DNA of 64,000 bases, from assembly GCA_947469885.1 (NCBI GenBank), contig CANIQT010000001.1, positions 248,001 through 312,000 of the forward strand, in the 5' to 3' direction. The notes under the pieces are model-generated. The model made no database searches. It saw only the letters and a list, made by a program, of their open reading frames with translations, and was not told the DNA's origin. The translations under genes and the position numbers were made by a program. The stretch's first letter is position 1. Every line of letters begins with the position of its first letter. The DNA comes from Bacteroidota bacterium (GTDB taxonomy: Bacteria > Bacteroidota > Bacteroidia > 2-12-FULL-35-15). This document shows positions 8,652-62,198 of the stretch, piece after piece.

Positions 8652-8952
8652 CAGGTAACCAAAATTGGCAACCATTTATCCAATAATTGCTTCCCTTTTT
8701 CCAATAATTGTTTCCCTTTTTCGGATAACTGTTTACCTTTATCCGATAAATGGAAACAACTTTGTTAAAACTAACATAGTTTTAACAAAGTTGCCAGTAA
8801 TTATTAAATAGTTACTGGCAATTATTTATTAGTTACTACCAATTTTTAAAAAATCCCTACCGATTTTTAGGTAATTGCCTGCCCTTTTGGGGCTATTTTT
8901 CGAGATAAAGAGGGTATTGCTTACCTTTAATTGGTTATTTGTTAATTAGTTA
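8652..8952. repeat. Array A: degenerate tandem repeat, strict 21-nt period
   Basis: About 14 consecutive units. Cores recur at 8659 (CCAAAATTGGCAACC), 8680 (CCAATAATTGCTTCCC), 8701 (CCAATAATTGTTTCCC) and 8722 (CGGATAACTGTTTACC). The right half keeps register at 8790 (GTTGCCAGTAATTATT), 8811 (GTTACTGGCAATTATT), 8832 (GTTACTACCAATTTTT), 8853 (ATCCCTACCGATTTTT), 8874 (ATTGCCTGCCCTTTTG), 8895 and 8916 (ATTGCTTACCTTTAAT). Units diverge gradually but never leave the 21-nt spacing. Confidence 0.8.
8757..8793. repeat. Perfect 16-bp inverted repeat inside array A
   Basis: CAACTTTGTTAAAACT, loop AACAT, AGTTTTAACAAAGTTG. It is not followed by a T-run, so it is unlikely to be a terminator. A second perfect inverted repeat follows directly (8791-8821: TTGCCAGTAA ... 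TTACTGGCAA), sharing the TTG. Confidence 0.85.
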
Positions 8953-9203
8953 GGCGTTTTGGGTGAAATTGTGTAGTTTGGGTTTGGTGGGCGTACTATT
9001 AGTATTAGGGGCATAATTTTGTCGAACTTATGTAATCAGTCAACAAATTAATGCTGAACAGTTGGTTGCCCTTCTCTTCCATAAATTGCATTAAGCATTA
9101 AACCCATCTTCTAAATTTTTCATACAACCCCAAAAAAAACTTCTTGCTAAAAAACAGTCAGGTGTTTTTTATGGTTTGTTTTACTCAACTGATAAATTAT
9201 TTT

Positions 9204-9211
9204 TACATTTG
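9204..9211 (+). promoter_or_regulatory. -7 element of the OmpA-family gene
   Basis: TACATTTG matches TAnnTTTG exactly, 17 nt before the ATG at 9229. No well-spaced TTTG -33 element is obvious (the nearest is 9175-9178, 25 nt upstream). Confidence 0.6.
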
Positions 9212-9228
9212 AAAAAAATAATTTCGTC

Positions 9229-11712
9229 ATGATTAAAAATCTACTACTTTCATTTTCATTTGTTTTATTTTCTCTTTGTGCATGGTCGCAAGATTTTATT
9301 GGTTTTGGCAATAGCAATTATGCTGGTGTAATTGGTACCGATTTGCAGCCGGCTTCGGTGGTGGATAGCCGGATGAAGCTGGATATTGTGGTGATTGGGA
9401 GTAGTATTAATTTGTATAATAATTACATTGGGCTCAAACACGAGGCGCTGGATTATAATTATCATTGGTATAATTTTAATACTGATAATTATTATGCGTT
9501 TAATGAAAAGCCGGTGCAAAAGCATATTGATATTGGTAATGGTCCAAAAGCAAAGTCGCTTTATTTGGGGCATAATCTTTATTTGCCTTCGGCAATGATT
9601 ACGATTAATAAAAATAATGCAATAGCGGTGAAATGGAAAATTCGCACGATAGTGAATGCTGACGGGCTAGAGGCGAGTTTGGCTAATTTGTTGTTTACGC
9701 AGTTGAAGGATGAGGCTTTGCATATTCCGTTGATTAATAATAAGGATTTGAATTTGCAAACGATGACTTGGGCGGAGTATGGGATTACATACGGGCATGT
9801 GTTGAGAGCGGAGGGTGAACATTTTTTGAAAGCGGGTGCAACGGTTAAGTATATCCAGGGTTTGAATGCTGCTTATATGTATGTTAAAGATTTGCATTAT
9901 GAGTTCAGTAATGATACGATACTTTCGATTTCGCATGGTGATGCGGGTTACGGGCATTCGAGCAACCTGAATGGAACAGAAAATAATTTAAGATATAAAA
10001 TGTCGAGCGAGCCATCGTTGGGGTTTGATGTGGGTGTGGTGTATGAATGGAGACCGGAGCATGCAAAATATAAATATGAAATGGATGGCGAAAAAGATTT
10101 GATTCGAAGAGATTTGAATAAATATAAACTTCGGGTTGGGCTGTCGGTGTTGGATATTGGGAGGGTGAAATATAAAAATGCCTTGAATCAAACGTTTAAT
10201 CCAACGGTGATTAATTGGAATATTCATCAGTTTGATGCTGGGAGTGTTTATCAGTTAGATACTATTTTGGATAATAAATACACAGGGTTTACGGCAAATA
10301 ATAATTCGAGTTTTGTGATGAATTTGCCAACGGTGATTACTGCTCAGATTGATTATCAGATATGGAAAGATTTTTATGTAAACCTGACACCTCGTTATGC
10401 TTTTCAGTTTAAGAAACGTCCGGCAAAGGTTCATGAAATGTCGATGATTAGTTTGACACCAAGGTGGGATCATAAACATTTTGGAGTTTTTGTTCCGCTA
10501 ACTTACGACCAAATGGGAATGTTTAGAGTGGGGTTGGGCTTGCGTATTGGTCCGTTGATTATTGGTACTTCTAATCTTGCACCTTTTCTTACTACAAAAA
10601 CCATGTATGGTGCCGATGTGGAAGCGATACTTCGTTTTCCGTTGTTGTATCCTAAAATTCATGATAAGGATGGTGACCATGTTTCGGATAAAAGAGACCG
10701 TTGTAAGGATGTGGCGGGTACGTGGGAATTTTTGGGTTGCCCTGATAGGGACCATGACCATGTGGAAGATAAAGATGATATTTGTCCGGATGAGGCTGGA
10801 TTGCCTGAGTTTAATGGGTGTCCGGATAAAGATGGTGATAAGATTCCTGATAAGCAAGATGCTTGTCCTGATGTGTTTGGTTTAGCACAATTTAATGGTT
10901 GCCCTGATACGGATGGTGATGGGATTACAGACAAAGAAGATGATTGTCCGACAGAAAAAGGGTTAGCACAGTTTAAAGGTTGCCCAGACAGAGATGGAGA
11001 CGGGGTGATGGATAAAAAAGATTTGTGTCCTGAAAAGCCTGGTCCGGTGAGCAATAATGGTTGTCCGGAAACAAAATTAATTTTGGTTGATAGTGCAGGG
11101 CTTGCGTTGAAAACAGTGGTGCAGAGCAAAGATGGCAGTTATAGTTTTGACGAATTGCCAAGCGATGAATTGGTACGTTTTAAATTGGAAGGAGAGCATG
11201 TGGATACTATTTTTGATGTAAAAGTGTTTCAGGGAGGCATTGCCAAACGAGCAATAAAAGATAACCGTGATGGGTATTTGCATTTCATAGTTTTGAAAAC
11301 AGATGTAAATAAATTGAATATGATGAAGGAAGTGGATGTGGCGGTGAAGCTGGATACGCTAGAAAAAGCAATTGTTGCAAAAGCATTTAGTAATCTTGAA
11401 TTTGCAGTTGGTAATGATGTGATTAAAAAAGAATCGTACAAATCGTTGGATGAGTTGGCAACTTTGCTGACAAAAAAATCGAAATGGAGATTAAAAATTT
11501 CGGGACATACGGATGATCAAGGCTTGCCTGCTGCTAACTTAAAACTTTCGCAAAAACGTTCTGAAGCTGTTAAAAAATATTTGGTTGGAAAAGGAATTAA
11601 AGCAGAGCGATTTAAAGTGGAATGGTTTGGGCAAACAAAACCAATTGCTGATAATAAAACCAACGAAGGCAGGCAGAAAAATAGGAGAGTGGAAATGTTG
11701 ATAATAAAATAA
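9229..11712 (+). CDS. DUF5723 / thrombospondin type 3 / OmpA-domain outer-membrane protein
   Basis: 827 residues. A signal peptide ends near residue 20 (CAWSQ). Residues ~22-460 match the DUF5723 type (NYAGVIGTDLQPASVVDSR), predicted as an outer-membrane barrel. Residues ~479-615 hold five or six calcium-binding TSP3 repeats (DKDGDHVSDKRDRC, DTDGDGITDKEDDC), each ending in a conserved GCPD-type turn. Residues ~720-827 form an OmpA C-terminal domain (ISGHTDDQGL; NEGRQKNRRVEM), which binds peptidoglycan. It probably links outer membrane and cell wall through a calcium-stiffened stalk. Monocistronic, with its own promoter. Confidence 0.9.
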   Translation: MIKNLLLSFSFVLFSLCAWSQDFIGFGNSNYAGVIGTDLQPASVVDSRMKLDIVVIGSSINLYNNYIGLKHEALDYNYHWYNFNTDNYYAFNEKPVQKHIDIGNGPKAKSLYLGHNLYLPSAMITINKNNAIAVKWKIRTIVNADGLEASLANLLFTQLKDEALHIPLINNKDLNLQTMTWAEYGITYGHVLRAEGEHFLKAGATVKYIQGLNAAYMYVKDLHYEFSNDTILSISHGDAGYGHSSNLNGTENNLRYKMSSEPSLGFDVGVVYEWRPEHAKYKYEMDGEKDLIRRDLNKYKLRVGLSVLDIGRVKYKNALNQTFNPTVINWNIHQFDAGSVYQLDTILDNKYTGFTANNNSSFVMNLPTVITAQIDYQIWKDFYVNLTPRYAFQFKKRPAKVHEMSMISLTPRWDHKHFGVFVPLTYDQMGMFRVGLGLRIGPLIIGTSNLAPFLTTKTMYGADVEAILRFPLLYPKIHDKDGDHVSDKRDRCKDVAGTWEFLGCPDRDHDHVEDKDDICPDEAGLPEFNGCPDKDGDKIPDKQDACPDVFGLAQFNGCPDTDGDGITDKEDDCPTEKGLAQFKGCPDRDGDGVMDKKDLCPEKPGPVSNNGCPETKLILVDSAGLALKTVVQSKDGSYSFDELPSDELVRFKLEGEHVDTIFDVKVFQGGIAKRAIKDNRDGYLHFIVLKTDVNKLNMMKEVDVAVKLDTLEKAIVAKAFSNLEFAVGNDVIKKESYKSLDELATLLTKKSKWRLKISGHTDDQGLPAANLKLSQKRSEAVKKYLVGKGIKAERFKVEWFGQTKPIADNKTNEGRQKNRRVEMLIIK

Positions 11713-11747
11713 AGGGTATTAGTATTGAGGACAAAGCCTCTATTAAA

Positions 11748-11897
11748 ATGAAAAACAAAAAACTATTAAGTGAAGAAGAAAAATTGGAAGTTCGTTTAGG
11801 CTATAGTCATACGAAGCGTTTCGAAATTCTGATGAAATTAATAAGAATAAATAAAATGTTGAAGGGTGCTAAAATTATTTACCCAGAAAAAAAATAA
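11748..11897 (+). CDS. Small basic protein (49 aa) paired with nucleotidyltransferase
   Basis: A small ORF of 49 residues: starts MKNKKLLSEEEKLEVRLG and contains HTKRFEILMKLIRINKMLK. It is Lys/Arg-rich and predicted helical. Its stop codon overlaps the start of the next gene (TAATG, 11895-11899), so translation is likely coupled. I recall similar short genes before nucleotidyltransferase genes in other Bacteroidota, so I take it as real. The role is unknown; it could be a partner or antitoxin-like subunit of the downstream enzyme. Confidence 0.65.
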   Translation: MKNKKLLSEEEKLEVRLGYSHTKRFEILMKLIRINKMLKGAKIIYPEKK

Positions 11898-12367
11898 TGG
11901 ATATTCTCGATGAAGAGTTGTTGGAACTTTGGCGTTTGTTGAACAAACACGGTGTTCTTTATATTATGGTAGGAGGTTTTGCTACCAATTTGCATGGGTT
12001 CAACCGTATAACTGCTGATTTGGATTTATGGATTAAAGACACCAAAGACAATCGAAATAAATTGAGAACTGTTTTAAAAGAATTAGAGATTGGGGATTTT
12101 GAAGAAATTGAAACAGTTAATTTTTTACCTGGATGGTCGGGTATAATGCTTAATTCAGGATTTGAACTGGATATTATGACTTTTCTGAAAGGTTTTGAAC
12201 AGAATACTTTTGACGAATGTTATGATTTAGCACCCACTGCTATTATTTCGGAAATTGAGGTTAAATTTTTAAGTATTAATCATCTTATTGAGGCGAAAAA
12301 AGCTTCTGCAAGAGAAAAAGATTTAATAGATATTGTTGAATTGGAAAAAATAAAAAATAAAAAATAA
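11897..12367 (+). CDS. MNT-type nucleotidyltransferase (DUF6036-like)
   Basis: 156 residues with the minimal nucleotidyltransferase signature GGFATNLHGFNRITADLDL (residues 26-44). The metal-binding acids are Asp41 and Asp43, with Asp92 (FELDIM) as likely third carboxylate. Such small enzymes transfer a nucleotide to a protein, tRNA or drug and often form two-gene modules, including toxin-antitoxin and AbiE-like systems. Here the partner is the overlapping 49-residue gene upstream, not a HEPN protein. Substrate unknown. The high Lys content of the C-terminus (LEKIKNKK) is typical of the neighbourhood. Confidence 0.78.
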   Translation: MDILDEELLELWRLLNKHGVLYIMVGGFATNLHGFNRITADLDLWIKDTKDNRNKLRTVLKELEIGDFEEIETVNFLPGWSGIMLNSGFELDIMTFLKGFEQNTFDECYDLAPTAIISEIEVKFLSINHLIEAKKASAREKDLIDIVELEKIKNKK

Positions 12368-12377
12368 AATTTCTTTT

Positions 12378-12385
12378 TACTTTTG
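12378..12385 (+). promoter_or_regulatory. -7 element of the secreted 209-aa protein
   Basis: TACTTTTG matches TAnnTTTG exactly and lies 25 nt before the ATG at 12411. Confidence 0.65.
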
Positions 12386-12410
12386 CAATCTAATCATAAA
12401 TAAAAAAACA

Positions 12411-13040
12411 ATGAAAAATATAATTTTATCAGCACTACTAATTGCATCAGTTAGTTTTGCAACTGCCCAAGGCAAGTCAACCGTGTTTTCGACCAACGAA
12501 ATAGTTTGGTATGGATTGGATTTTACAAAAGCAAAATTTGTTGGTCAGTTTGACCAAGGTATGGGAGCCATGCCAGCAAAGGGTTACGACATGAAAGTGA
12601 AATGGGTGCCTCAGTGGAATTCTTTGATAGCAAAGGAACCAAAGAATTTTGATTTGAGAAAAGCGATGGAAAAGGAAAATATAATTTATGATTTGGAGCC
12701 TGTTAATACAGTGAATTCGAAGATGGACAAAGATGATTGCATGTCGTTTAATGCTGGAAAAATTGAAAAAAATAAAATTGATTATATGATAGAGGCTTAC
12801 CCTAGGGGAGAACAAAAAAATGGTATCGGCTGTGTGTTTATTGTCGAAAATTTTAATAAAAATATGGAATCAGCATCAGTGTATGTTACCTTTTTCGACA
12901 TTGCTTCTAAAAAAGTATTGCTTTGCGAAAAGATGGAAGGTAAACCAATGGGTGTTGGAATGAGAAATTACTGGGCAGGAGCAATTAAAGCAATTATAAA
13001 ACAAATTGGCGATAGTCAATGGAGCAATTGGAAAGGATAA
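12411..13040 (+). CDS. Secreted protein of unknown function
   Basis: 209 residues. A clear signal peptide (MKNIILSALLIASVSFATAQ, cleavage about residue 20) targets it to the periplasm or beyond. The mature part begins GKSTVFSTNEIVWYGLDFTKAKF and alternates beta strands with few helices. The end (AGAIKAIIKQIGDSQWSNWK) is a probable amphipathic helix. There is no T9SS sorting domain, lipobox or catalytic motif that I recognise. It is a single transcription unit with its own promoter and terminator. I have seen similar proteins only as Bacteroidota hypotheticals. Confidence 0.8.
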   Translation: MKNIILSALLIASVSFATAQGKSTVFSTNEIVWYGLDFTKAKFVGQFDQGMGAMPAKGYDMKVKWVPQWNSLIAKEPKNFDLRKAMEKENIIYDLEPVNTVNSKMDKDDCMSFNAGKIEKNKIDYMIEAYPRGEQKNGIGCVFIVENFNKNMESASVYVTFFDIASKKVLLCEKMEGKPMGVGMRNYWAGAIKAIIKQIGDSQWSNWKG

Positions 13041-13050
13041 AATAATATTT

Positions 13051-13086
13051 TAAAAATCCCTCGCAATGTTCGAGGGATTTTTTTTT
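13051..13086 (+). terminator. Intrinsic terminator
   Basis: AAATCCCTCG, loop CAATGTT, CGAGGGATTT followed by a T-run. It ends the 209-residue secreted protein transcript. Confidence 0.9.
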
Positions 13087-13199
13087 GTGATGAATTTATT
13101 ATGAAGCCTAGTTTTTTCAAAGTAAAAAAATAATCGAAAAACAGGAATTGTAACCAAAAAATAAATTGGATATTTACCTAATATTTATAAACCAAAAAA

Positions 13200-14054
13200 A
13201 TGAAACTGCACAGCATACACACCGGAAATTTTAAATTAGATGGAGGAGCCATGTTTGGGGTTGTTCCTAAAAGCATTTGGTACAAATCAAATCCATCGGA
13301 CGAAAACAATATGTGCAATTGGGCAATGCGGTGTTTATTGATTGAAGATGGAAACAGACTGATATTAATAGACAACGGAATGGGAACCAAACAGGATGCA
13401 AAGTTTTTTGGTTACTATTATTTAAATGGAAATTATTCGCTAGAAAACTCATTGAAACAAGCAGGTTTTGGTAGCGATGATGTGACCGATATGTTTTTAA
13501 CACATCTTCATTTCGACCATTGCGGAGGAAGTATTAAATATAATGAGGACAGAACAAAATATGAAACTACTTTTAGAAACGCTACTTACTGGAGCAATAC
13601 AGAACATTGGGAATGGGCAACAAAACCTAACCCAAGAGAGAAGCCAAGTTTTTTGAAAGAAAATATTTTTCCAATTCAGGAAAGCGGGCAACTAAAAATG
13701 GTGGATGGAGAAAACACCAAACAACTTGGTGAGGCTGTTTCGCTGAATTACATGCGCGGACATACCGATGCCATGATGCTCCCTAAAATTAATTACAAAG
13801 GAAAAACAATAGTTTATATGGCAGATTTGGTTCCTTCTGTCGGTCACATTCCGTTGGCTTATGTTATGGGATACGATACTCGTCCGCTATTAACATTAAC
13901 AGAAAAAGAAAAACTATTGAACGAAGCAGCCGACAAAGAATATATTTTATTTCTGGAACATGATTCGGTAAATGAATGTTGCACAGTTCAGCACACGGAA
14001 AAAGGAGTACGATTGAAAGAAGTTTTTACATTAAAAGAATATTTTGGAGAGTAG
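13200..14054 (+). CDS. Metallo-beta-lactamase-fold hydrolase (AHL-lactonase-like)
   Basis: 284 residues with no signal peptide. The metal site is complete: HLHFDH at residues 102-107, a histidine in RGHTDAM (about 187), an aspartate in MADLVP (about 209) and a histidine in LEHDS (about 254). This pattern fits the subgroup that includes N-acyl-homoserine lactonases. The actual substrate cannot be inferred, and many members hydrolyse other lactones or esters. The next gene starts 55 nt downstream on the same strand. Confidence 0.87.
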   Translation: MKLHSIHTGNFKLDGGAMFGVVPKSIWYKSNPSDENNMCNWAMRCLLIEDGNRLILIDNGMGTKQDAKFFGYYYLNGNYSLENSLKQAGFGSDDVTDMFLTHLHFDHCGGSIKYNEDRTKYETTFRNATYWSNTEHWEWATKPNPREKPSFLKENIFPIQESGQLKMVDGENTKQLGEAVSLNYMRGHTDAMMLPKINYKGKTIVYMADLVPSVGHIPLAYVMGYDTRPLLTLTEKEKLLNEAADKEYILFLEHDSVNECCTVQHTEKGVRLKEVFTLKEYFGE

Positions 14055-14109
14055 GGGTTATGAATTTCTAATCTATACGAATTTACAAATAACAAATAAC
14101 TATAATAAC

Positions 14110-14511: not shown

Positions 14512-14531
14512 AAAAACTATTGTTTATTATT

Positions 14532-15488: not shown

Positions 15489-15498
15489 TTTTTTTCTA

Positions 15499-16299: not shown

Positions 16300-16309
16300 T
16301 TTGTATTTA

Positions 16310-16747: not shown

Positions 16748-16766
16748 TTATTGGTGGATTTACTAC

Positions 16767-16799: not shown

Positions 16800-16809
16800 A
16801 AAGTACTAT

Positions 16810-19397: not shown

Positions 19398-20256
19398 GGT
19401 TTTGGAATTATGTGTTATGAATTATAAATTTGTGTGCAGGGATTTCAAACGATGTGCCAAGGGGAAAGGACTGACAAGATGGCAATAAATATTTTCTTTT
19501 CAACACAGAGGGCACGAAGTTAAAGGAGTTTCACAGAGAAATAAAAAAATCCCGCTCTTTTTCGCTTCTCCCCTGCCGCGCTTTAAATTAGGGGGGCGGT
19601 TTCCGGAATTGCTAGTATAAAAAACATTAACAAACTCAATAGAGCACCTTGTATGCAATTTATACCTTGGATGCTATAAGTGAATTCCGGAAGAGAGAAA
19701 ATAATTTATGGGGCCTTAAAATGGGTATTTTTTATTTCGGAGTGATTTTTTTGAGATTTAATGTATTTTTCATGATATCGCAAGTGTTTCCCACAGTTGT
19801 CATTTCATTTATTTTGATATCGCAGGTGTTTCCCACGATGCTCTTTTGGCATATTACGACATCGCATGTGTTTCCCGTGGTAGTCATTTCATTTATTATG
19901 ACATCGCAGATGTTTCCCACGATATTCATTTGTCATATTATAACATCGCATTTGTTTCCCACCGCATCGCACCTGCTTCCGGTAACATCGCGTTGGCATA
20001 TTATGACATCGCATGTGAATTTTGGGATATGGGGAAAGAGAAATTTGGAATTGGTTGTGGGAATTTTGATGTTCGATTTTGAAACGGAAGATTGAGGTTT
20101 GTATTATTTTGAAACTGACCGGAAGATTTTTGAAATGATTTGGAAAGAAATGATTGCCTGTGTTGATTTATGCAATGTTGTTTTTATTAATTATTTTGTT
20201 GTTTGATATTATTTGAAGCCTTATCTTTACTTTCATAAACTTTTAACTTAAATAAA
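19398..20256. other. Long intergenic region without a credible gene
   Basis: 859 bp. Positions 19500-19541 hold a degenerate CACAGAGGGCAC...CACAGAGAA element of the type dispersed in Bacteroidota. Array B occupies 19774-20046. ORFs of 65-148 codons cross the array in several frames only because a 21-nt period keeps frames open; none looks like a protein. No clear promoter for the downstream gene is visible, though TTATCTTTA near 20220 is close to a -7 box. Confidence 0.75.
19774..20046. repeat. Array B: 21-nt periodic repeat with 42-nt alternation
   Basis: Thirteen consecutive 21-nt units. One unit type starts at 19774, 19816, 19858, 19900 and 19942 with GAYATCGCAnnTGTTTCCC; the spacing is exactly 42 each time. 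The intervening units (19795, 19837, 19879, 19921) carry TCATTTCATTTATT or GGCATATTA words. From 19963 the CATCGC word appears every 21 nt (19963, 19984, 20005). All spacings are multiples of 21. Confidence 0.88.
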
Positions 20257-21228: not shown

Positions 21229-22104
21229 ATGAAGAAACTCTTTTTCATACTTTTATTATGTGGGTGTTTTGTTAATGCGGATGCGCAAGCATGGATATAT
21301 CATCCAATGCCGGAAAGTAATGCGGTGTGGAGAGTGGATCAAGGCGCAGCATTTTGCAATCAATTAACTTCTACCTTTCAATATTCAACAAGAAGTGACA
21401 CTGTGATAGGTAGTTTTAATTATAATAAAATCTATGCTTCTGGTGTGTTTATGATTTGTGCGGGTGGTTATTGGGACAATTATTATCGCGGAGCAATGCG
21501 AAATGATACTTTAAATAAAAAAGTTTACTTTATTGAACGTGATTCATTAAATGAAATACTTCTTTATGATTTTTCTTTAAATGTGGGAGATACTCTTTAT
21601 GGAACAATGCCCTTTGGTAATTCTCCAGTTACTTCTATAGATTCGGTTTTGGTTGGGAGTAATTATCATAAAAGGTTCTTTTCTAGTACATGGGAAATAA
21701 TAGAAGGTGTTGGTTCAACTTATGGATTGTTAGAAATCAAATTCCCTGAGTTTATCGAGTCTATGTACCTAATTTGTTTTACACACAATGCAGATACTTA
21801 CATAAATAATAATTTCGGTAATTGTGTAGTAATAGATAGTACAATGGTTGGTATAAATGAAATCTATAAACCACCATCAACAATCGAAATCTCCCCCAAC
21901 CCCGCCACCTCTGCATTTACTATTACTTCTTCATCAAAACTAAAAGAAATAAAACTGTTTAGTGTTTTGGGGGAATGTATTTATCAATCCGAAATCTCAA
22001 ATTCGAAATCCGAAATTGATATAAGTAGTTTAGCAAAAGGAATTTATTTTGTTGAAATAAAAACGGAAGAAGGAATAGTGAGGAAGAAGGTGGTGAAGCA
22101 ATAA
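21229..22104 (+). CDS. Secreted protein with T9SS type A sorting domain
   Basis: 291 residues. A signal peptide (residues 1-~19, ending ADAQ) and a C-terminal sorting domain from residue ~220 (IEISPNPATSAFTI; KLFSVLGECIYQ; LAKGIYFVEIKTEEG; RKKVVKQ) show export by the type IX system. The ~200 residues between have several Cys and aromatic residues and no recognised domain (GSFNYNKIYASGVFMICAGG). Cargo function unknown. It is followed after 46 nt by another T9SS cargo gene that has its own promoter. Confidence 0.87.
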   Translation: MKKLFFILLLCGCFVNADAQAWIYHPMPESNAVWRVDQGAAFCNQLTSTFQYSTRSDTVIGSFNYNKIYASGVFMICAGGYWDNYYRGAMRNDTLNKKVYFIERDSLNEILLYDFSLNVGDTLYGTMPFGNSPVTSIDSVLVGSNYHKRFFSSTWEIIEGVGSTYGLLEIKFPEFIESMYLICFTHNADTYINNNFGNCVVIDSTMVGINEIYKPPSTIEISPNPATSAFTITSSSKLKEIKLFSVLGECIYQSEISNSKSEIDISSLAKGIYFVEIKTEEGIVRKKVVKQ

Positions 22105-22138
22105 ACATATTAAACTCTACTTCTCCATAATTTTATTT

Positions 22139-30494: not shown

Positions 30495-30628
30495 ATTTCC
30501 AAAAAACGGGTTAAAAAAGCAAGGCAGAAAGGTGTTTTTACGGACAATGGGACTTTTTGGGTTTTTATCCCTTTCTTTTTGGAAAAGAAAGGGAATAAGG
30601 AGGAAAAGAAAGGAACATTTAAGATGAA

Positions 30629-30775
30629 ATTAGGGAAGCTTGGGGTGAAAATTTGGGAAATTTCAGGCAAAATTTGGGAAGTTTAGGTAAAACTTAGGGA
30701 AGTTTAAGCCAAACTTCCTGAAGTTTTTGATAAAAAAGGGGATATTTAGGCGAAACATGGCTTTCTTTTCGAAAA
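30629..30775. repeat. Array E: degenerate 21-nt periodic repeat
   Basis: Units start at 30629, 30650, 30671, 30692, 30713, 30734 and 30755. Aligned cores: ATTAGGGAAGCTTGGGG, AATTTGGGAAATTTCAGG, AATTTGGGAAGTTTAGG, ACTTAGGGAAGTTTAAG, ACTTCCTGAAGTTTTTG, AAAAGGGGATATTTAGG. The first four are closest; the register then fades toward 30817. Confidence 0.75.
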
Positions 30776-30850
30776 TAATAGGGAGTGCCTTTTTTGAGGT
30801 TTCCACATTGTTTGAATGGCTTAAACAGATAGGTAGATGCACTATTTAAT

Positions 30851-41159: not shown

Positions 41160-41348
41160 AGTATTTTATTTCACATTTAGTGTTTGCAAGAGTATTTTCC
41201 CTGAATAAGCTCTTACATTTCCTGTTTGCAAGAGCATTTTCCCCGAATAAGCTCTTACATTTCTTTTTTGCAAGAACTCTTTCCCCGGATAAGCTCTTAC
41301 ATTCGCCAAATGAGGTCTCCGATTCCCGAAATGAGATCTCCGATTCCA
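41160..41348. repeat. Array C: 21-nt periodic repeat with 42-nt units
   Basis: TGTTTGCAAGAGTATTTTCC begins at 41181, and its copies follow at 41223 and 41265 (42 nt apart). The alternating unit with AATAAGCTCTTACATT begins at 41202, 41244 and 41286. Two further 21-nt copies follow at 41307 and 41328 (AAATGAGGTCTCCGATTCC, AAATGAGATCTCCGATTCC). AAGAG in one unit and CTCTT in the next make each 42-mer a partial dyad. Confidence 0.9.
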
Positions 41349-41458: not shown

Positions 41459-44092
41459 ATGAAGAAAGTAATTGCAATTGTTTTGGCGCTTGTTATATAT
41501 GGGGGGGTGAAAGGGCAAGTGCCCTTCATTACCAAATGGGATTTATCTTATGCAGGCAGTGGGGCTACGCAAATTACATTTGGTGTGGGCACCACAGGCA
41601 TTGTTAATTATACATGGTTACAATTAACAGGTGGCAGTGCTACCGGCAGTGGTACTTTTAGTGGAACTACTGCAACTATTACAGGTTTGCCTATAGGGGC
41701 TACAATACAATTAAGTATTGACTCTGTAAATTTCAATAGATTAAGTATTAATAGTGGGATAGACAGAAGCCGCTTACTTGATGTGGAACAATGGGGCACT
41801 ATAGCATGGAACAGCATGCAGTCTGCTTTTACAGGTTGTGCTAACTTAAATATTACAGCCACGGATTTGCCAAACTTAATTGGAGTTCATGACATGAGTT
41901 TTATGTTTTCTAATTGTCCTGTTTTGAATGGACCAGCTAACATAGGTAGTTGGAACACCTCCGGGGTTACCAATTTTTCTAGTATGTTTAATGGTGATTT
42001 AACTTTCAATCAACCCATTGGCAATTGGAATACTTCTGCAGTAACTAATATGAGTGGTATGTTCCAATATGCTCATGCCTTCAATCAACCTATAGGAACC
42101 TGGAATACTTCTTCTGTTGCAAACATGGGCTGGATGTTTAATTATGCATTTAACTTCAATCAACCCATCGGTAGCTGGAATACATCTTCTGTTACAAATA
42201 TGAATACTATGTTTAATCATGCAAGCGCCTTCAACAAACCAATTAATAGTTGGAACACATCTGCTGTTATTAATATGAGTTTTATGTTTAATTATGCAAC
42301 TACCTTCAACCAACCAATTGGGAGTTGGAATACATCTTCCGTTACTAATATGAATTCTATGTTTGGTGAGGCGCATGCATTTAATAGGCCAATTGGTAGT
42401 TGGAATACATCATCAGTAACCGATATGAGCTGGATGTTTTATTATGCCTATTCTTTTAATCAACCATTAAATGGTTGGGATACACATGCGGTAACAAACA
42501 TGAGTGTGATGTTTGAAAAAGCCAGCAGTTTTAATCAATCCCTTGACAACTGGAATCTAAGTTCAATTCTTAGTTTACAAGACATGCTTGACAGTTGTGG
42601 TATGAATTGTGCAAATTACTCAGCTACTTTAGTAGGATGGAATTCTAATATTAATACACCTAATAGTCGCAACCTACAACTATTATATACACTTCATTAT
42701 GGCACAGATGCAGTGGCTGCGCGTAATAATCTTATTAACATAAAAGGATGGACATTGATTGGAGACATAGCGAATGGTTTTGCATGTTTGCCAATTCCTC
42801 CTTCATTTACCGACTGCCCTGGCACGCAAAATAGTAGTACTGATAGTGGTACCTGCTCTGCAATGCTAAATTACACCGATACTTTAACAGGGAATCCTGT
42901 TCCAATTCTTACTCATACTTTCAGCGGTGCAACAACAGGCAGTGGCGCAGGTGATGGCAGTGGAACCGCCTTTAATGCTGGAACAACTGTAGTAACCATT
43001 ATTGCTGCAAACATGGGAGGCAGCGACACCTGCTCTTTCAATGTAATTGTTACCGATAATGAAAGTCCAACTATTACGGCACCAATAGATGTTGCAGGGT
43101 GTCTTGGTTCAACTGTTGTGCTTGGTACTCCCACATCAAGCGATAATTGCGGCAGTGTATTTGTTACCAACGATGCGCCTGCTGCTTTTCCTTTTGGAGC
43201 CACTATAGTAACCTGGACAGCCGATGATGGTCATGGCAACACAGCTACTGCAACTCAAAATGTAGTGGTTAATTCTGCGACATCATATACCCTATTTCAA
43301 ACAGCTTGTGATAGTTACGCATTAAATTCACAAACTTACACTTCTACAGGAGCATACACGCAAATGCTTACCAATGTAGAAGGGTGTGACAGTGTATTAA
43401 CAATTAATCTTACTATAAATAATGCAACAAGTAATTCCATTTCTCCAACTGCCTGTGATAGTTATACATTAAATTCTCAAACTTATACTACCTCAGGAGC
43501 ATACACTCAAACTCTTACCAATTCAATAGGGTGTGATAGCGTATTAACTATAAATTTAACGATTAATCCATTACCAATTGTTATATTTACAGAAAGTATT
43601 GATACAACTTGTGGTAGTAATCCTCCGATGGTTTTTACAATTGATCCTGCAACTCCTTTAGGTGGAATATATTCCGGTACCTGTGTTTCGGGTAATATAT
43701 TTGATGCGTCATTCGGAAACTTATTGGCATTTAATAATATCGTTTACAGTTATACAGATTTAAATGGTTGTTCTGCAAGCGCCACAGATTCCGTGTTTTT
43801 AGATTTTTGTGTTGGCATTAATAAACCATCATCTTCCGAACAACTCACCATCTTCTTGTCCCCCAACCCCGCCACCACCCAATTAACAATTCAACAATTG
43901 GACAATTCAACAATCGAAACCATACATATATATAATGTGCTTGGGGAGATGGTGCAGTCATCGGACATCGGACATCGGACATCGGTTGCTTTAGATGTAA
44001 GCGGGCTGAACAAAGGAATTTATTTTATTGAAGCAGCACTTATTCGGGGTAACAACAATCAAATAATAAGAAAGAAATTTGTAAAAGAATAA
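41459..44092 (+). CDS. BspA-like (DUF285) repeat protein with HYR-type domain and T9SS sorting domain
   Basis: 877 residues. Signal peptide (1-~19). Residues ~120-400 contain about ten 25-residue DUF285 repeats with the core [20 protein letters not shown], which bind as leucine-rich-like solenoids on the surface. Residues ~445-600 look like HYR/Ig-type domains ([30 protein letters not shown]). Two short repeats follow ([20 protein letters not shown], ~615-705). A type A T9SS sorting domain ends the protein ([21 protein letters not shown]). Probably a surface adhesin. The DUF285 coding repeats are nearly identical and could vary by recombination. Confidence 0.9.
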
Positions 44093-56402: not shown

Positions 56403-56407
56403 AAAGT

Positions 56408-56758: not shown

Positions 56759-57438
56759 ACTATCCCTCCATTCAGGTCAATGCAGGAGCCTGTTAAATAA
56801 GGCGTTTCTCGGATGTATTGAATGGTATTAAATATATTCTGAGGGTCGCCAAATTCATTAAATGCAATTTTTGTTTTTATCTTTTCCTGCATTTCCATGG
56901 GAACTGTGTTTATCATTCCTACTTTAAAATATCCTAAATTAATACTATTTACTGTAACAGCTTTTTGCGCGTTTTCCAATGCAATACTTTTTATCATTCC
57001 GTTGAGTCCTGCCTTGGAAGCGGCATAAGCAGATGTCCCCATCACTCCTGTTTGAGCAACTATGGACGAAAGATTTATGATTCGTCCGAAATTCTGTTCC
57101 CTCATCAATGGTAAAATTGCTCTTATTAAATAAAATGTTCCTGTCAGATTTACATTTATTACACTTGCCCATTCGTGAACATCCGATTTGTGTGCAAACG
57201 CATTATACGATATCCCTGCACAATTGATAAGGGTAATGTTTTCGGAATGCGATGATATACTGTTTACAAATTTCTCTACCTCGCTATTATCAGTAATGTC
57301 CAATTGAACACAGTTTTTATATTGCTCTCCTTCAGGTTTGGATAAATGATAGGTTCCAATTATCTCTTCCCCATTTTTAAAAAACGAATTGAATAAATAA
57401 TTCCCTATTCCACCTGTTACACCTGTTATTATTATCAT
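56755..57438 (-). CDS. SDR-family oxidoreductase
   Basis: 227 residues, classical short-chain dehydrogenase: NAD(P)-binding TGVTGGIGNYLF at the N-terminus, NCAGISYNAFA (NAG motif), catalytic Ser-Tyr-Lys in SSIVAQ...TSAYAASKAGLNG (YxxxK at ~150) and a C-terminal GSCIDLNGGIV. FabG-like appearance; the actual substrate is unknown. In this neighbourhood (GT2, TPR-GT) it may modify a sugar or fatty acyl group. Starts 13 nt after the TPR gene on the same strand, so probably co-transcribed. Confidence 0.9.
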   Translation of the reverse strand: MIIITGVTGGIGNYLFNSFFKNGEEIIGTYHLSKPEGEQYKNCVQLDITDNSEVEKFVNSISSHSENITLINCAGISYNAFAHKSDVHEWASVINVNLTGTFYLIRAILPLMREQNFGRIINLSSIVAQTGVMGTSAYAASKAGLNGMIKSIALENAQKAVTVNSINLGYFKVGMINTVPMEMQEKIKTKIAFNEFGDPQNIFNTIQYIRETPYLTGSCIDLNGGIV

Positions 57439-57450
57439 GATTTATTTTTT

Positions 57451-59229
57451 CTATTTACTTATTTGTTCATTCGCCATGTTCATGTAATTCTCTGCCTCTG
57501 CATTTCCTGGTATTGTTTGCAAGGTAGTTTTTGCTGCTTGCAACAAATTGTTCCAATCACCGATTTTATAATATAGTTTCATCAGTTCCAAACGAGCCGC
57601 TAAATGTGCAGGAGAAATTTCAATAGCTTTTGTAAGTTTTTCAATCGCTTCCTCGTTCCTGTTCACATTATTTAAAAATCGTCCGTAAAAATACCAACTA
57701 TCGGGATAAGATGCACCTTTTTGTATGGCTGTTTTAAAATAACTTTCTGCATTTATATAATCTCCGGTTGATTCTTTTAAAACACCCATGTTGACATACA
57801 AAAAAGAATACTCGGACCACATACTTAATGCTTGCAAAAAATAGCTTTCCGCTTCGGGATAATTTCCTTTTCTCATTTGCGACAAACCGTAATTCATCAA
57901 TCCCCGTGCATTCTTAGGGCTTTTAACAGCTACATCTTTCCACAATGTTTCTTCTGTGTTCCACACTTTGTTTCGTTGGCGAACTCCATACGCATAGCCT
58001 GATAATAAAAATAAAACAGAAGCAATAACTACTGCTTGATAATTCTTTATTGAACTTTGAAATTGTTTTTGATATTTTAAAAGCAACAATCCCACCGCCC
58101 AGCAAACGCTTATTACCAAACCAATGTAAGGAAAATAAATACGATGGTCGTTCAATACTTCTGCAAAAGGAATGAAGCTGGAAGAAGGCAGCAATGCAAT
58201 AAAAAACCAACTAATTCCAAATGAAATGGGGCGCAAGCGTTCATCTTTAGAAAATAAAATGGCTATTAAAATCATCATACTTATAAATAGTAAGCCAATA
58301 AAGAATTTTATATTCCAAATTGTTTGCAATGGTTCCCAATCGGTGTCAGCACTTAACCCAAATGGTAAAAAGAAAGTGGTAAAATAATGAAGAATGACAA
58401 AAGGTTGTGAAATCATATAATTAAAAGTAGATGCTCCGCCCGATTGCCATGTTTTGGGAGTAAACGCATCTACCCATTTATACATTATGATACAAAAAAT
58501 AAAAGCAGGAATAGTTTTAATAAATACTCCTCCTACACGTTTCAAATTTTCTTTTTTAAAAACACTTAGGAAACTTATTTTTTCTTCAAACATCAAAATA
58601 TAAAAAAACAAAAGTGGTGCAAAAGTTACTGCAGAAGGTTTTGCCAAGATGCCAATACCTACAGGAAGTAAATACAAAAATGTTTTTTTGCAGAAAGGAG
58701 AAAAAATATATAACACTAAACCAAGCAATAAAAAAAAGGTGGATTGCAAATCGCTGCGTGCAATAATGTAATTTATTGTTTCTGCATTGGCAGGATGCAG
58801 CATGTACCACAAAGTGGCAATGGAGGCAATGTAAAAATTCCAGGAGTTTTTATAAGATATATCTAGGAGTTTAAAAATTAAAAAGAACATCAAAACACCT
58901 TGCAGCAAAAACAAAATGAAAGAAGACCAGTGAAAATAAAATAAATTGTATCCATTGCCCAGCCAATAATCAAATGCTAACGATGCGCTTACAATGGGAC
59001 GATACGATTGGTTTTGAGGCAATGAACTAAAAGTAGTACCATCCTTAAAAAACAAAGGTATATTGTGAATGTTCTGAATAAATAAATTATTTTCGATGGT
59101 ATGTGCATCATCAAAATGAAAAGAGTTTTGAAAGTGATTGGAATAAGTAAGCGTAACAACAACAATTAATAAAAATAAAAACAGGAATGTTTTTGTTTTG
59201 GGTAAATGTTCGAATAATTGTTTAAACAT
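57451..59229 (-). CDS. Multispanning membrane protein with TPR C-terminus (TMTC/GT-C-like)
   Basis: 592 residues. About ten membrane helices fill residues ~15-430, with the first loop HFDDAHTIENNLFIQNI that resembles GT-C-type enzymes (Asp-containing first loop). The C-terminal third has TPR repeats (EAESYFLQALSMWSEYSFLY, NAESYFKTAIQKGASYPDSW, EAIEKLTKAIEISPAHLAARL). Similar proteins are often annotated as TMTC- or O-mannosyltransferase-like. Probably transfers a sugar from a lipid carrier to a surface molecule. First gene of an operon with the SDR. Confidence 0.82.
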   Translation of the reverse strand: MFKQLFEHLPKTKTFLFLFLLIVVVTLTYSNHFQNSFHFDDAHTIENNLFIQNIHNIPLFFKDGTTFSSLPQNQSYRPIVSASLAFDYWLGNGYNLFYFHWSSFILFLLQGVLMFFLIFKLLDISYKNSWNFYIASIATLWYMLHPANAETINYIIARSDLQSTFFLLLGLVLYIFSPFCKKTFLYLLPVGIGILAKPSAVTFAPLLFFYILMFEEKISFLSVFKKENLKRVGGVFIKTIPAFIFCIIMYKWVDAFTPKTWQSGGASTFNYMISQPFVILHYFTTFFLPFGLSADTDWEPLQTIWNIKFFIGLLFISMMILIAILFSKDERLRPISFGISWFFIALLPSSSFIPFAEVLNDHRIYFPYIGLVISVCWAVGLLLLKYQKQFQSSIKNYQAVVIASVLFLLSGYAYGVRQRNKVWNTEETLWKDVAVKSPKNARGLMNYGLSQMRKGNYPEAESYFLQALSMWSEYSFLYVNMGVLKESTGDYINAESYFKTAIQKGASYPDSWYFYGRFLNNVNRNEEAIEKLTKAIEISPAHLAARLELMKLYYKIGDWNNLLQAAKTTLQTIPGNAEAENYMNMANEQISK

Positions 59230-59274
59230 ATATTGTATAGTATATGTGTAAAAGTAATAAAATATTTTAAAGAC

Positions 59275-59330
59275 CTCACCCCCTACCCCTCTCCTTGAAA
59301 AAAGGAGAGGGGAGTTGGCGCCTGAAGTAC
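59275..59330. repeat. Pyrimidine/purine hairpin element, copy 1 flanking a T9SS gene
   Basis: CACCCCCTACCCCTCTCC TTGAAAAA AGGAGAGGGG then GTTGGCGCCTGAAGTAC. Shares its layout with 60745-60800, in the same orientation and differing at few positions. Together they flank the T9SS gene at 59339-60670. Confidence 0.8.
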
Positions 59331-59338
59331 ACTCAAAT

Positions 59339-60670
59339 TTATTGCTTAATCAATTTTTTATTTAGTATTCCCTGCTCTGTTTTTATATTTACAAAATAAA
59401 TTCCTTTAGCAAAAGCACTCATATCTATTATCAGTTGTTGGTTGTTAGTTGTTAGTTGTTGGATGGTATTTCCTAAAATATCCTTAATATTTATAGCTGT
59501 ATTTTTTTGTTCTTCTGAAAAAGTAATTGTGGTGGAGGAGTTGAAGGGGTTCGGGGAAATAGTGACTAAAGATAGAGGATTTGAAATTTCGGAGACAGAA
59601 GTTAATACACCACATGTATCGGTATAATTTCCGCCATTCCATTGGGTAACATAATTCATGGTATCTCCAAGAACAGTTTTGAAATTCCCTCCCAAATACA
59701 AATTGTTATTATAAACCGCCAAACAATTAACGAATGTACTGTTTGCATTGAAACCTAAGCCACACCACTCTGTCCCATTCCACTTTGCTAAACTATATAT
59801 CGGACACCCACCCGCTTGAAAAAAATGTCCACCGGCATATAATTCATTATTATAAACCTGGAGGTCCTTAACTGAGAAGTTTACACCACCACCAACATTA
59901 TCCCATTGAATTCCATCCCAACTTGCAATATTATGTATAAGCAAAGGATTTCCATTATTAGTTCCTATATATCCTGCAGCATATAACTTATTATTATATA
60001 CTTCCAGGCATAAAATATTAACATTAAATGAGCTACTTAAATTGCCCACAGGTTGCCATTGAGTACCATCCCATTTTGCAACAAAACCTATAGTTCCTGT
60101 TTGATTTAGAAAATTTCCTCCAATATATAATTCACCATTATACATTGCAGCACAATTTATAGAACCTGTAAATGATGTTGTTGTATCCATTGCTCTCCAT
60201 ACAGTTCCGTCATACCTTGCTATTCGGCTTGCTATGACACCATTGATAGAATCGATAACACCCATAGCATATAAATCATTATTGTTTACAAACAAAGACA
60301 ATACCCATCCGTTAGTATGCACCGCTATTGTATCTGCACTTATTCCATCAGAACTTAAAATTGCATCATTTGCGGTAAAAACAAGTTTATTGTTATACGT
60401 AATAATGGAGCCAATAATATAAGAACTATTATTTATGACGGGGATGGTATCCCACTTCACTCCATTATATTGAGCAGTACTATTAGGAGTATTAACACTA
60501 CCCCCAGCCACAGTAAAATAACCGATGGCGTATAATTTATTATTGACGGAATCAAAAGTCAATTGATTTACATAGCTAGTAAAACCTGAATCAACACTTA
60601 CCCAATTTTGAGAGAAAGATTCAAATGGCATTAACCAAAGGAAAATACCAACAATTAAATATTTTTTCAT
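59339..60670 (-). CDS. Secreted protein with kelch-like repeats and T9SS sorting domain
   Basis: 443 residues from the ATG at 60670 (MKKYLIVGIFLWLMPFESFS, signal peptide); the frame extends 30 nt further upstream. The central part has about seven repeats of the type YNGELYIGGNFLNQTG, AKWDGTQWQPVG, YNNELYAGGHFFQAGG and WNGTEWCGLG, forming a delta-60/kelch-like propeller. The C-terminus is a type A sorting domain (ISPNPFNSSTTITF; NIKDILGNTIQQL; KGIYFVNIKTEQG). Secreted or cell-surface protein of unknown ligand. Both flanks carry the same hairpin element (59275, 60745). Confidence 0.88.
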   Translation of the reverse strand: MKKYLIVGIFLWLMPFESFSQNWVSVDSGFTSYVNQLTFDSVNNKLYAIGYFTVAGGSVNTPNSTAQYNGVKWDTIPVINNSSYIIGSIITYNNKLVFTANDAILSSDGISADTIAVHTNGWVLSLFVNNNDLYAMGVIDSINGVIASRIARYDGTVWRAMDTTTSFTGSINCAAMYNGELYIGGNFLNQTGTIGFVAKWDGTQWQPVGNLSSSFNVNILCLEVYNNKLYAAGYIGTNNGNPLLIHNIASWDGIQWDNVGGGVNFSVKDLQVYNNELYAGGHFFQAGGCPIYSLAKWNGTEWCGLGFNANSTFVNCLAVYNNNLYLGGNFKTVLGDTMNYVTQWNGGNYTDTCGVLTSVSEISNPLSLVTISPNPFNSSTTITFSEEQKNTAINIKDILGNTIQQLTTNNQQLIIDMSAFAKGIYFVNIKTEQGILNKKLIKQ

Positions 60671-60744
60671 GAGTAGAAGTATTAATAATTTCTCCCTCAA
60701 ATATACATCTTATATATACAGTTACAATAAATTATTTATAAAAC

Positions 60745-60800
60745 TTCACCCCCGACCCCTCTCCTTGAAAAAAGGAGAGGGGAGCCAGAACCTGAAGTAC
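60745..60800. repeat. Pyrimidine/purine hairpin element, copy 2
   Basis: CACCCCCGACCCCTCTCC TTGAAAAA AGGAGAGGGG then GCCAGAACCTGAAGTAC, aligned with copy 1 at 59275-59330 in the same orientation. Confidence 0.8.
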
Positions 60801-60836
60801 TTTGTAAATAAAATAATTTTAGCGATTTTTTTACGT

Positions 60837-60884
60837 CCTACCCCCTCTCCTTCCTTCAAGGAGAGGGGATGAAGGGGTGAGGTC
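60837..60884. repeat. Pyrimidine/purine hairpin element, copy 3 (opposite orientation)
   Basis: CCTACCCCCTCTCC TTCCTTCAA GGAGAGGGGATGAAGGGGTGAGGTC. Related to copies 1 and 2 but inverted. Confidence 0.7.
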
Positions 60885-60894
60885 TTTTTCAAAA

Positions 60895-60924
60895 TAAAAA
60901 AGCCCCACTTTTGTGAGGCTTTTA
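60895..60924 (-). terminator. Intrinsic terminator after 60945-61610
   Basis: Read on the minus strand: AAAAGCCTCAC, loop AAAA, GTGGGGCTTTTTT. It ends 20 nt past the stop of the 221-residue gene. Confidence 0.8.
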
Positions 60925-60944
60925 GAATTTAGATTTATTTATTA

Positions 60945-61610
60945 TTAAGCAATTAAAGTACTGAAAGGTTCTCCGTCAGGTCCTGCTTCGCCAGTAGGAT
61001 TAAGATAAAAAGCAATTATCCAAACTCTTTTTCCAACTTGGTCGGAAGTATAAAATGTATCAAAAACAGTTTTCTTTTTTGGCAACTGCAACTCATACGC
61101 ACTCAATGCAGGAGCCGCAGCATCAGCATCGGTTATCGCTATTCTGTAACCTACTGCGGCTACATCTTTTTCTTTCCCTTTTTTTGTAGGGTTAGCCGGA
61201 TTAAACACAAATATTTTAATAGTTAAAGGTGTTTTGCTTAAAAAAGTAACCGATGGTCGTATGTCGGATACAGGAACATGTGTTCTGTGCGGTTTGTCTT
61301 CCGGAATATCAAGTGCCAAACGGGCAGTACCTGTTAAAGTAATAGCAGGATTTGATTTGATTTGACCTTGAATTCTACCGGTATAAATTGAATCAGTATT
61401 ATAAGCACCATGAATGTTGGACTCGCTTCCCGGTCCGTAAGTGGTGGGATTGGTATAAGCATTCATAAATCCCTGGTAGTTGGTCCACATACCTTCAAGA
61501 GTTGTTTTTTGAGTATCAGACACATTAAGATTTGCCTGATTAGCTACTACGTACGCTACAAATTCTTTTAAAAAGAAATAATATAGCACTAAGGTTACAT
61601 TAAATTTCAT
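60945..61610 (-). CDS. Unknown protein: helical N-terminus plus Ig/fnIII-like domain (array D neighbour)
   Basis: 221 residues. The N-terminal third is helical with a hydrophobic start (VTLVLYYFFLKEFVAYVVAN) and TTLEGMWTNYQGFMNAY. A middle strand section (ITLTGTARLALDIPEDKPHR; HVPVSDIRPSVTF) and a C-terminal Ig-like part (KDVAAVGYRIAITDADAAAP; FYTSDQVGKRVWIIAFYLN; TGEAGPDGEPFSTL) follow. No secretion signal is evident. I recall similar ~210-aa hypotheticals in Bacteroidota. The gene is alone, with terminator downstream and array D starting 134 nt upstream. Confidence 0.75.
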   Translation of the reverse strand: MKFNVTLVLYYFFLKEFVAYVVANQANLNVSDTQKTTLEGMWTNYQGFMNAYTNPTTYGPGSESNIHGAYNTDSIYTGRIQGQIKSNPAITLTGTARLALDIPEDKPHRTHVPVSDIRPSVTFLSKTPLTIKIFVFNPANPTKKGKEKDVAAVGYRIAITDADAAAPALSAYELQLPKKKTVFDTFYTSDQVGKRVWIIAFYLNPTGEAGPDGEPFSTLIA

Positions 61611-62198
61611 AATTGTTTTGGTTTAAATTGTTATTTATTAATTGATTAATTTACTTATTTTACTATTTATCTTATTCATTAGTATTACTTTGTATTTCCT
61701 ATTTCACTTTCATTTTTTCTAAAATCAGGACATTTACCCCCATCTTCAAAGATTTAGTGTTTACCTTCAAACATTTTACATTTATCTTCAAACATTTTCA
61801 TTTTATTTTCAACCTTTTGTTGTGCAACCTTTAAAGGTTTTTGTTTTTTCTTTAAAGATTTACTTAAATGTTTGAACCATTTCATTTTTCTTTCAAAGAT
61901 TTTGTATTTTTCTTCAAACAAAAACTAATTTTAGTATTCGTTTTTTTCATTCATCTTCAAAGATGGAACAAAATGTTTGAAGATGGAACCGAAATCTTTA
62001 AACATAAAAGTGAAATCTTTGAAGTGGCGAAAAACTTGCTTCTTTTTGTCTTTCAACTGTTGTTTCAACCGGTAATTATACTTACAAAGAACGATGCTCA
62101 ACACCAAAATCAAATTTAGATGCCGTAAAATTACTCCTCTTCAATGAGATACTATGTAGTCCGTTTTAAAAAGGCGACTACAAAGCTTCACTTTTACA
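61611..62198. other. Long intergenic region holding array D
   Basis: 588 bp between the divergently placed ends of 60945-61610 and 62199-62648. 61611-61740 is very AT-rich, array D covers 61744-62037, and 62040-62198 shows nothing I recognise. The 83- and 60-codon ORFs here are by-products of the repeat. Confidence 0.75.
61744..62037. repeat. Array D: degenerate 21-nt periodic repeat, both orientations in phase
   Basis: Fourteen consecutive units. CTTCAAAGATTTAG at 61744, CTTCAAACATTTTA at 61765, CTTCAAACATTTTC at 61786, TTTCAACCTTTTG at 61807, CCTTTAAAGGTTTT at 61828, TCTTTAAAGATTTA at 61849, GTTTGAACCATTTC at 61870, TTTCAAAGATTTTG at 61891 and CTTCAAACAAAAAC at 61912. Then from 61954 the complement dominates: GTTTGAAGATGGAA at 61975, CTTTAAACATAAAAG at 61996, CTTTGAAGTGGCG at 62017. 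Every spacing is 21. Confidence 0.9.

What the first reader, a model, noticed from the sequence alone, without database searches (positions are those of the whole stretch)
8652..62037. Family of five noncoding arrays with a strict 21-nt period but unrelated sequences
Five intergenic regions (8652-8952, 19774-20046, 30629-30775, 41160-41348, 61744-62037) each contain tandem units spaced by exactly 21 nt, or 42 nt as alternating pairs. I aligned unit starts by position: no indel breaks the register over 7-14 units. The consensus differs completely between arrays (CCAATAATTG-TTCCC; CATCGCA-TGTTTCCC; TTTGGGAAGTTT; TTTGCAAGAG/CTCTTAC; CTTCAAACATTT). What is shared is the period, which equals two turns of B-DNA (2 x 10.5 bp). 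Ordinary tandem repeats decay by indels; a preserved period with drifting sequence implies selection on spacing or a copying process that acts in 21-nt steps. Possible roles: helically phased binding sites for a nucleoid or silencing protein, a phased structural DNA element, or an unknown array-building mechanism. I cannot choose between these.
Basis: partly seen in the sequence, partly recalled or inferred. Interest (0 to 1): 0.92.

Follow-up and report, generated by a model that had tools for sequence, protein, structure and literature searches.

The report
21-nt spaced promoter-side DNA repeat arrays
A small group of Bacteroidota fills gaps between its genes with short DNA arrays whose sequences differ everywhere but whose step is held at 21 bases, about two turns of the double helix, which looks like a repeat kind already described in Bacillus but still unexplained.

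Summary
In detail: all five arrays are real (z 7-13 against shuffles) and part of a genome-wide trait. In the 437-kb contig, non-coding repeat signal stands at lags 21-126 in steps of 21 (11-21 times the median). I counted 35 arrays of 21 nt against 4 of other unit sizes 17-26 in the window's genome and three congeners, and none of 21 nt in seven other congeners. A fifth species, placed in the group by an HtpG tree and sampled afterwards, had 6 of 21 nt and none of other sizes. New here: units are dyad-symmetric (24 of 39 arrays) and indels are depleted about 6-12-fold against other non-coding DNA. The arrays are not coding, show no RNA-type covariation and favour divergent promoter regions. 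They meet the tested features of a published, unexplained class, 'constant repeat size, variable sequence' (PMC8161180, Bacillus). Preferred mechanism, inferred only: a helically phased scaffold for a dimeric DNA-binding protein with little base specificity. Main rival: a copying process in 21-nt steps.

The parts
8652..8952 (.). Array 1: about 14 drifting 21-nt units with a 37-nt palindrome in the middle; between DUF3352 and OmpA-family genes
   Evidence: dispersed copies at G000:C3 and C34; gain and loss of a 21-nt unit between copies; dyad P 0.002
19774..20046 (.). Array 2: alternating 42-nt pairs, between divergent htpG and a 312-aa gene
   Evidence: 21-nt arrays of other sequence upstream of htpG in G014, G004 and G012; dyad P 0.08, not significant
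30629..30775 (.). Array 3: about 7 units of 21 nt, the core of a dispersed element
   Evidence: dyad P 0.004
30513..30807 (.). Roughly 300-bp dispersed element around array 3: conserved left arm with a hairpin, 21-nt array core, conserved right arm; 6 copies in the genome; not found at this locus in G004 (50 bp between the genes) and G014 (70 bp)
41160..41348 (.). Array 4: alternating inverted 21-mers (AAGAGC / GCTCTT cores 21 nt apart), upstream of a DUF285 surface-protein gene
   Evidence: dyad P 0.007
61744..62037 (.). Array 5: CTTCAAA/TTTGAAG units, weak in the middle, one +1 step
   Evidence: dyad test not significant (P 0.32, on 61725-61831 only)

Best explanation
These are bacterial satellite arrays of the 'constant repeat size, variable sequence' kind. 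A short, often dyad-symmetric 21-nt seed (or 42 nt, two roughly inverted 21-mers), usually upstream of a gene, is amplified, then drifts by substitution while its spacing is held. Shown here: constant period, sequence turnover, indel depletion, dyads, bias to divergent intervals, clade restriction, whole-unit gain and loss. Inferred: the spacing is held because a dimeric, oligomerising protein with little base specificity binds one dyad every two helical turns on one face of the DNA and forms a scaffold near promoters, perhaps insulating divergent promoters. Any seed with the right symmetry and step would do, which would explain unrelated sequences in one genome.
Against: No protein was identified; HU copy number does not follow the trait. 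No 10.5-bp A/T phasing. 15 of 39 arrays show no significant dyad, among them arrays 2 and 5 of the window. Near-perfect two-copy tandem duplications of 16-60 nt outside arrays are almost absent from non-coding DNA (one, itself 21 nt), which fits a biased copying process better than selection among random duplications. Co-location of arrays in relatives is not significant (3 of 7 against 2 of 18, p 0.11). 20 of 22 arrays have a flanking gene starting towards them, but 57 of 67 intervals of 200 bp or more do so anyway (divergent plus tandem), so that adds nothing. Nothing here is experimental.
Confidence: 0.4

Rival explanations
1. A clade-specific copying process builds arrays in 21-nt steps (slippage or template switching at hairpin-forming seeds, constrained to two helical turns). 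Function is not needed; dyads are a by-product of the seed and the step size is set by the machinery.
For: Almost no young tandem duplications of other sizes in non-coding DNA of the contig; 35 arrays of 21 nt against 4 of other sizes 17-26, 6 against 0 in G012; dyads present without compensatory covariation; whole-unit gains and losses.
Against: Does not by itself explain indel depletion after birth or the bias to divergent intervals. Reverse transcriptases do not follow the trait: no RVT_1 in G000 and G004, present in 6 of 8 genomes outside the group. Y1 transposases do not follow it. The substitution spectrum is ordinary (184 transitions, 200 transversions, no A-only bias).
Confidence: 0.33
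2. The arrays work as transcribed hairpin arrays (RNA-level binding sites or sponges).
For: Dyads, and lower folding energy than column-permuted arrays (mean z -2.4, n 19); among non-Watson-Crick cells G-T outnumber A-C, 268 to 186, on the contig strand, not controlled for composition or transcription; 52-nt Bacillus arrays are reported as transcribed (PMC8161180, discussion; PMC8625621, passages).
Against: No covariation of paired columns (1551 observed against 1549.9 expected); half of the array-bearing intervals lie between divergent gene starts (10 of 20); no Rfam family other than a tRNA in the window.
Confidence: 0.1
3. Ordinary neutral tandem repeats that happen to have a 21-nt unit.
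For: Tandem repeats of any unit gain and lose whole units; low indel rates alone would keep a register for some time.
Against: One unit size for unrelated seeds in five species, indel depletion relative to other non-coding DNA, no 21-nt array in the samples of seven congeners.
Confidence: 0.09
4. Array 3 and perhaps others are cores of small mobile elements, and the 21-nt pattern spreads by transposition.
For: 6 copies of a roughly 300-bp element in the genome with conserved arms; locus without it in G004; hits in 4 of 19 genus genomes searched (own, G004, G005 and a weak one in G015).
Against: Among the C1 arrays compared with each other only the array-3 family members match over their length; two homologous arrays of about 17 units in G004 share sequence from the array's start and not beyond it.
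Confidence: 0.08

Closest known systems
Bacterial tandem repeats of constant size and variable sequence, 20-21 nt class of Bacillus (Subirana and Messeguer 2021, PMC8161180; read: abstract, first of two parts of the results, discussion, figure legends and tables)
   Same: Non-coding, constant 20-21 nt unit with some of 40-41 nt, several families per genome with different sequences, species-specific, present in some species only; the authors note two helical turns and suggest a protein that polymerises on DNA
   Different: Different phylum; here the unit is 21 with hardly any 20. Dyad symmetry, indel depletion and promoter-side bias were measured here; I did not see them measured in the parts read (the paper does say that short signals and their reverse often occur in one 52-nt repeat)
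52-nt tandem repeats of Bacillus (same paper)
   Same: Constant length, variable sequence; of the 27 consensus units of its Table 1, 8 are dyad-symmetric at P<0.05, Fisher 1.2e-5
   Different: 52 nt, about five helical turns
Survey of satellites in prokaryotes (Subirana and Messeguer 2019, PMC6749651; abstract and two results sections read)
   Same: Intergenic satellite families; families of transposed satellites in Leptospira
   Different: Other unit sizes stand out in the sections read
Iterons and plasmid centromere repeats (recalled, no call)
   Same: Steps of about 20 bp on which proteins assemble
   Different: One sequence per replicon and base-specific binding; here sequences differ between arrays of one genome

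Membership tests
Constant-size, variable-sequence bacterial tandem repeats (20-21 nt class) | One constant repeat length dominating non-coding tandem repeats of the genome | tested here: met
   35 of 39 arrays with unit 17-26 in four genomes are 21 nt; 6 of 6 in G012
Constant-size, variable-sequence bacterial tandem repeats (20-21 nt class) | Several families with unrelated sequences in one genome | tested here: met
Constant-size, variable-sequence bacterial tandem repeats (20-21 nt class) | Species-specific sequences | tested here: met
   (no match to the arrays in the stretches searched against G004, G005, G014). Exceptions: array-3 element also in G004 and G005; one array family shared by the sister species G012 and G014
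Constant-size, variable-sequence bacterial tandem repeats (20-21 nt class) | Not protein coding | tested here: met
   31 of 39 with an open frame, 29.8 expected; codon-position substitutions 413/446/417
Constant-size, variable-sequence bacterial tandem repeats (20-21 nt class) | Transcribed | not testable with these tools
   no RNA data at hand; reported for 52-nt arrays
Phased curved DNA | A/T periodicity near 10.5 bp | tested here: not met
   harmonic 2 (1.43) is not above harmonics 3 and 4 (1.39, 1.73)
Structured ncRNA array | Compensatory base changes | tested here: not met
Known Rfam family | Match above gathering score | tested here: not met
   only a tRNA in the window
Mobile element (array 3) | Several copies with defined ends and empty sites | tested here: inconclusive
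   copies and a locus without it seen; no terminal inverted repeat or target duplication established

The most novel reading that the evidence does not exclude
A lineage of bacteria maintains some two hundred DNA lattices near promoters (22 in a ninth of the genome) that are read by geometry, not by base sequence: dyads at one- or two-turn spacing serve a protein that reads helical phase, or are written by a copying machine with a 21-nt step.
Probability: 0.3. Interest if true: 0.9.

Novelty: new member of a known kind. Interest (0 to 1): 0.6.

Why it matters
The authors who described constant-size, variable-sequence repeats call them enigmatic (PMC8161180, abstract). A group of species with many arrays next to congeners where samples show none, plus measured indel depletion and dyad symmetry, turns 'why this length' into a question that can be tested by comparative genomics and by respacing experiments. 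If geometry alone is read, it would be an unusual form of chromosomal regulation.

Tried and rejected
Rejected by test: protein-coding heptapeptide repeats (two arrays of C1, at 392664 and 431536, were first called as ORFs); RNA structure with covariation; A/T curvature; Rfam RNAs; reverse-transcriptase link; Y1 transposase link; HU copy number; mutagenic A-only copying; a shared function of neighbouring genes (30 proteins: htpG, ftsK, NA37, pyruvate dehydrogenase E2, T9SS-sorted surface proteins, OmpA, a transglutaminase, an HNH-repeat protein and many without a family; no common theme).

Inconclusive: co-location of arrays in relatives (p 0.11). Array birth could not be watched: even between sister species G012 and G014, whose genes flanking the htpG array are 90-92% identical, the alignment breaks off at the array on both sides and only short pieces of it match. 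Target duplication of the array-3 element not found.

Weaknesses: neighbouring units and some arrays are related, so counts are not fully independent; one search drops 4 homologous arrays. The non-coding samples of G002, G003 and G006 are small (3-4 kb each, with a small overlap in G003); most of the negative evidence is G009, G010, G011 and G015; six congeners (G001, G007, G008, G013, G016, G017, G018 less those seen only at htpG) were not sampled beyond htpG loci. The HtpG tree joins the five array-bearing species with weak support only (85/45); in its label count G012, then unsampled, stood as without arrays. Gene calls come from my own hexamer script. The indel baseline rests on 36 and 21 alignments. 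Dropped before counting: arrays with strong 7- or 14-nt periodicity (8 and 16 too) and those under 100 bp. The comparison of 21-mer z-scores returned no number.

Full report
What is there. The window is G000:C1:248001-312000 of a 4.07-Mb genome in 50 contigs; its E2 protein is closest to uncultured Bacteroidota. The five reported regions are real tandem arrays with lag 21 or 42 as the best lag, z 7.3 to 12.6 against 500 dinucleotide shuffles each. Register is very good but not perfect.

Genome scale. I took the whole contig C1 (437 kb; plus the window). In its 185 non-coding intervals, 6-base match runs at lags 21, 42, 63, 84, 105 and 126 are 11-21 times the median lag (z 24-48); lags 7 and 14 reach about 5 times and all others at most 3.4 times. 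The arrays have unrelated units.

Group of species. With one detector (at least 100 bp, non-coding, short-period repeats removed) the window's genome and G004, G005, G014 hold 20, 6, 5 and 4 arrays of unit 21 in 95.3 kb of non-coding DNA, and 4 in all of any other unit 17-26. Samples of seven other congeners (G002, G003, G006, G009, G010, G011, G015; about 88 kb non-coding) hold none of unit 21 and 5 of other units; at equal density about 32 of unit 21 would be expected (numbers). By HtpG, G005, G014, G004 and G012 are the nearest congeners (96, 91, 87%, and 92 and 88% in two pieces). A tree of HtpG puts G012 with G014 (98/96) and joins all five with weak support (85/45). G012 was sampled only then: 6 arrays of unit 21, none of other units, lag 21 at 32 times the median in 26.7 kb. 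Isolated cases occur elsewhere: one array each in G021 (same class) and in a Flavobacteriales locus, L095.

Turnover. The arrays in the stretches searched do not match anything in G004, G005 and G014, except array 3. Upstream of htpG, G014 and G004 carry 21-nt arrays of other sequence; no array was detected in the other 14 of 16 congeners seen there, G005 included. G012, seen later, has one too; it and the one of its sister G014 share only short pieces although the flanking genes are 90-92% identical. So four of the five species of the group carry arrays there. Copies of array 1 at C1 and C3, 88% alike, differ by one gained and one lost 21-nt unit and by one single base at the edge. One copy of the array-3 element lacks 64 nt, three units plus one base.

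Array 3 is the core of a roughly 300-bp dispersed element with conserved arms: 6 copies in the genome, hits in 4 of 19 genus genomes (own, G004, G005, and a weak partial one in G015). At the orthologous place G004 has only about 50 bp between the two genes.

Spacing is held. Array self-alignments show 11 gap openings per 1277 mismatches; other non-coding paralogs of the contig 44 per 436. Using each stretch once: arrays 7/528, non-coding DNA against relatives 61/533, paralogs 29/357; Fisher 2e-11 and 2e-6. Tracking phase along the 39 arrays gave 14 one-base events, most near array edges, for 2183 mismatches. Simulated arrays passed through the same detector give 0.0073 (range 0.003-0.014) for no indels, 0.013 for a ratio of 0.01, 0.032 (minimum 0.019) for 0.03 and 0.083 for 0.1, so the detector does not create the depletion seen (0.0086). 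It is not reading-frame selection: 31 of 39 arrays have an open frame against 29.8 expected, and substitutions fall evenly on codon positions, 413/446/417.

Dyads. For 39 arrays of four genomes, column profiles were tested for circular dyad symmetry against 1000 column permutations: 24 of 39 at P<0.05, Fisher 6e-28; 42-nt arrays 7 of 9, 21-nt arrays 17 of 30. After removing 4 homologous arrays 20 of 35, Fisher 1e-23. Random intergenic 21-mers and 42-mers give 2.5% and 6% (600 each) against 6 of 30 and 6 of 9 for array consensuses. In 42-nt arrays such as array 4 the second half is close to the inverted first half (13 of 19 positions, counted by eye); the array L318:730-1018 of G012 shows the same to the eye. 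Paired columns do not covary (1551 complementary cells against 1549.9), so the symmetry is not kept by compensatory change. Of the window's arrays, 1, 3 and 4 pass the dyad test and 2 and 5 do not.

Place. 10 of 19 divergent intervals of 200 bp or more hold an array, against 10 of 48 others (p 0.017). 20 of 22 arrays have a flanking gene that starts towards them, no more than expected, since 57 of 67 such intervals have one. Neighbouring genes have no common function.

Mechanism. Shown: constant step, drifting sequence, indel depletion, dyads, bias to divergent intervals, restriction to one group of species. Inferred: a dimeric, oligomerising protein reads the helical step. Against it: no candidate found (HU copy number does not follow the trait), no A/T phasing, and the near absence of other-sized young duplications, which points to a 21-nt-step copying process as main rival. 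RVT_1 is absent from G000 and G004, Y1 transposases do not follow the trait, and the substitution spectrum is ordinary.

Known kind. PMC8161180 (abstract, first part of the results, discussion, legends and tables read) describes 20-21-nt and 52-nt Bacillus repeats of constant size and variable sequence, species-specific, with a suggested nucleoid or RNA role, and notes two helical turns. PMC6749651 (abstract and two sections) surveys prokaryote satellites. The defining features that could be tested are met. Of 27 published 52-nt-class consensuses, 8 are dyad-symmetric at P<0.05, Fisher 1.2e-5, which suggests that dyads belong to the class. My searches (listings) showed no paper on such arrays in Bacteroidota; the J. 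Bacteriol. 2020 survey is not held and may include some.

Noticed in passing
window 19486-19550 and 21850-22120: Short dispersed repeats with many hits in G004, G005 and G014; the first, between htpG and array 2, contains ACACAGAG and TTCACAGAGAAA.
   Followed up: no
window 42005-42466: 75-nt tandem repeats inside a DUF285 (PARCEL) T9SS-sorted surface-protein gene directly downstream of array 4.
   Followed up: no
contig C1 57837-58087, 92236-92385 and 256640-256898: These arrays fold much better than column-permuted versions (z -5 to -8), apparently because opposite-orientation units or a central palindrome occur in one array.
   Followed up: partly
L045 (G018, upstream of htpG): A different tandem pattern with lags 63-64, 55 and 32 upstream of htpG.
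   Followed up: no
L174-L175 (G021): Non-coding lags 43, 63, 86 and 129 are strong in this same-class outgroup; one 21-nt array was listed there.
   Followed up: partly
G000:C3:182909-183207 (L002): Homology with the window runs through the 3' end of the DUF3352 gene and array 1, then stops: a duplication of gene end plus array.
   Followed up: partly
L313:9019-9150 (G012) and L244:16688-16965 (G014): Two sister species share one array family (up to 88% identity, no gaps over 78 nt in the best matches) with different numbers of units.
   Followed up: partly
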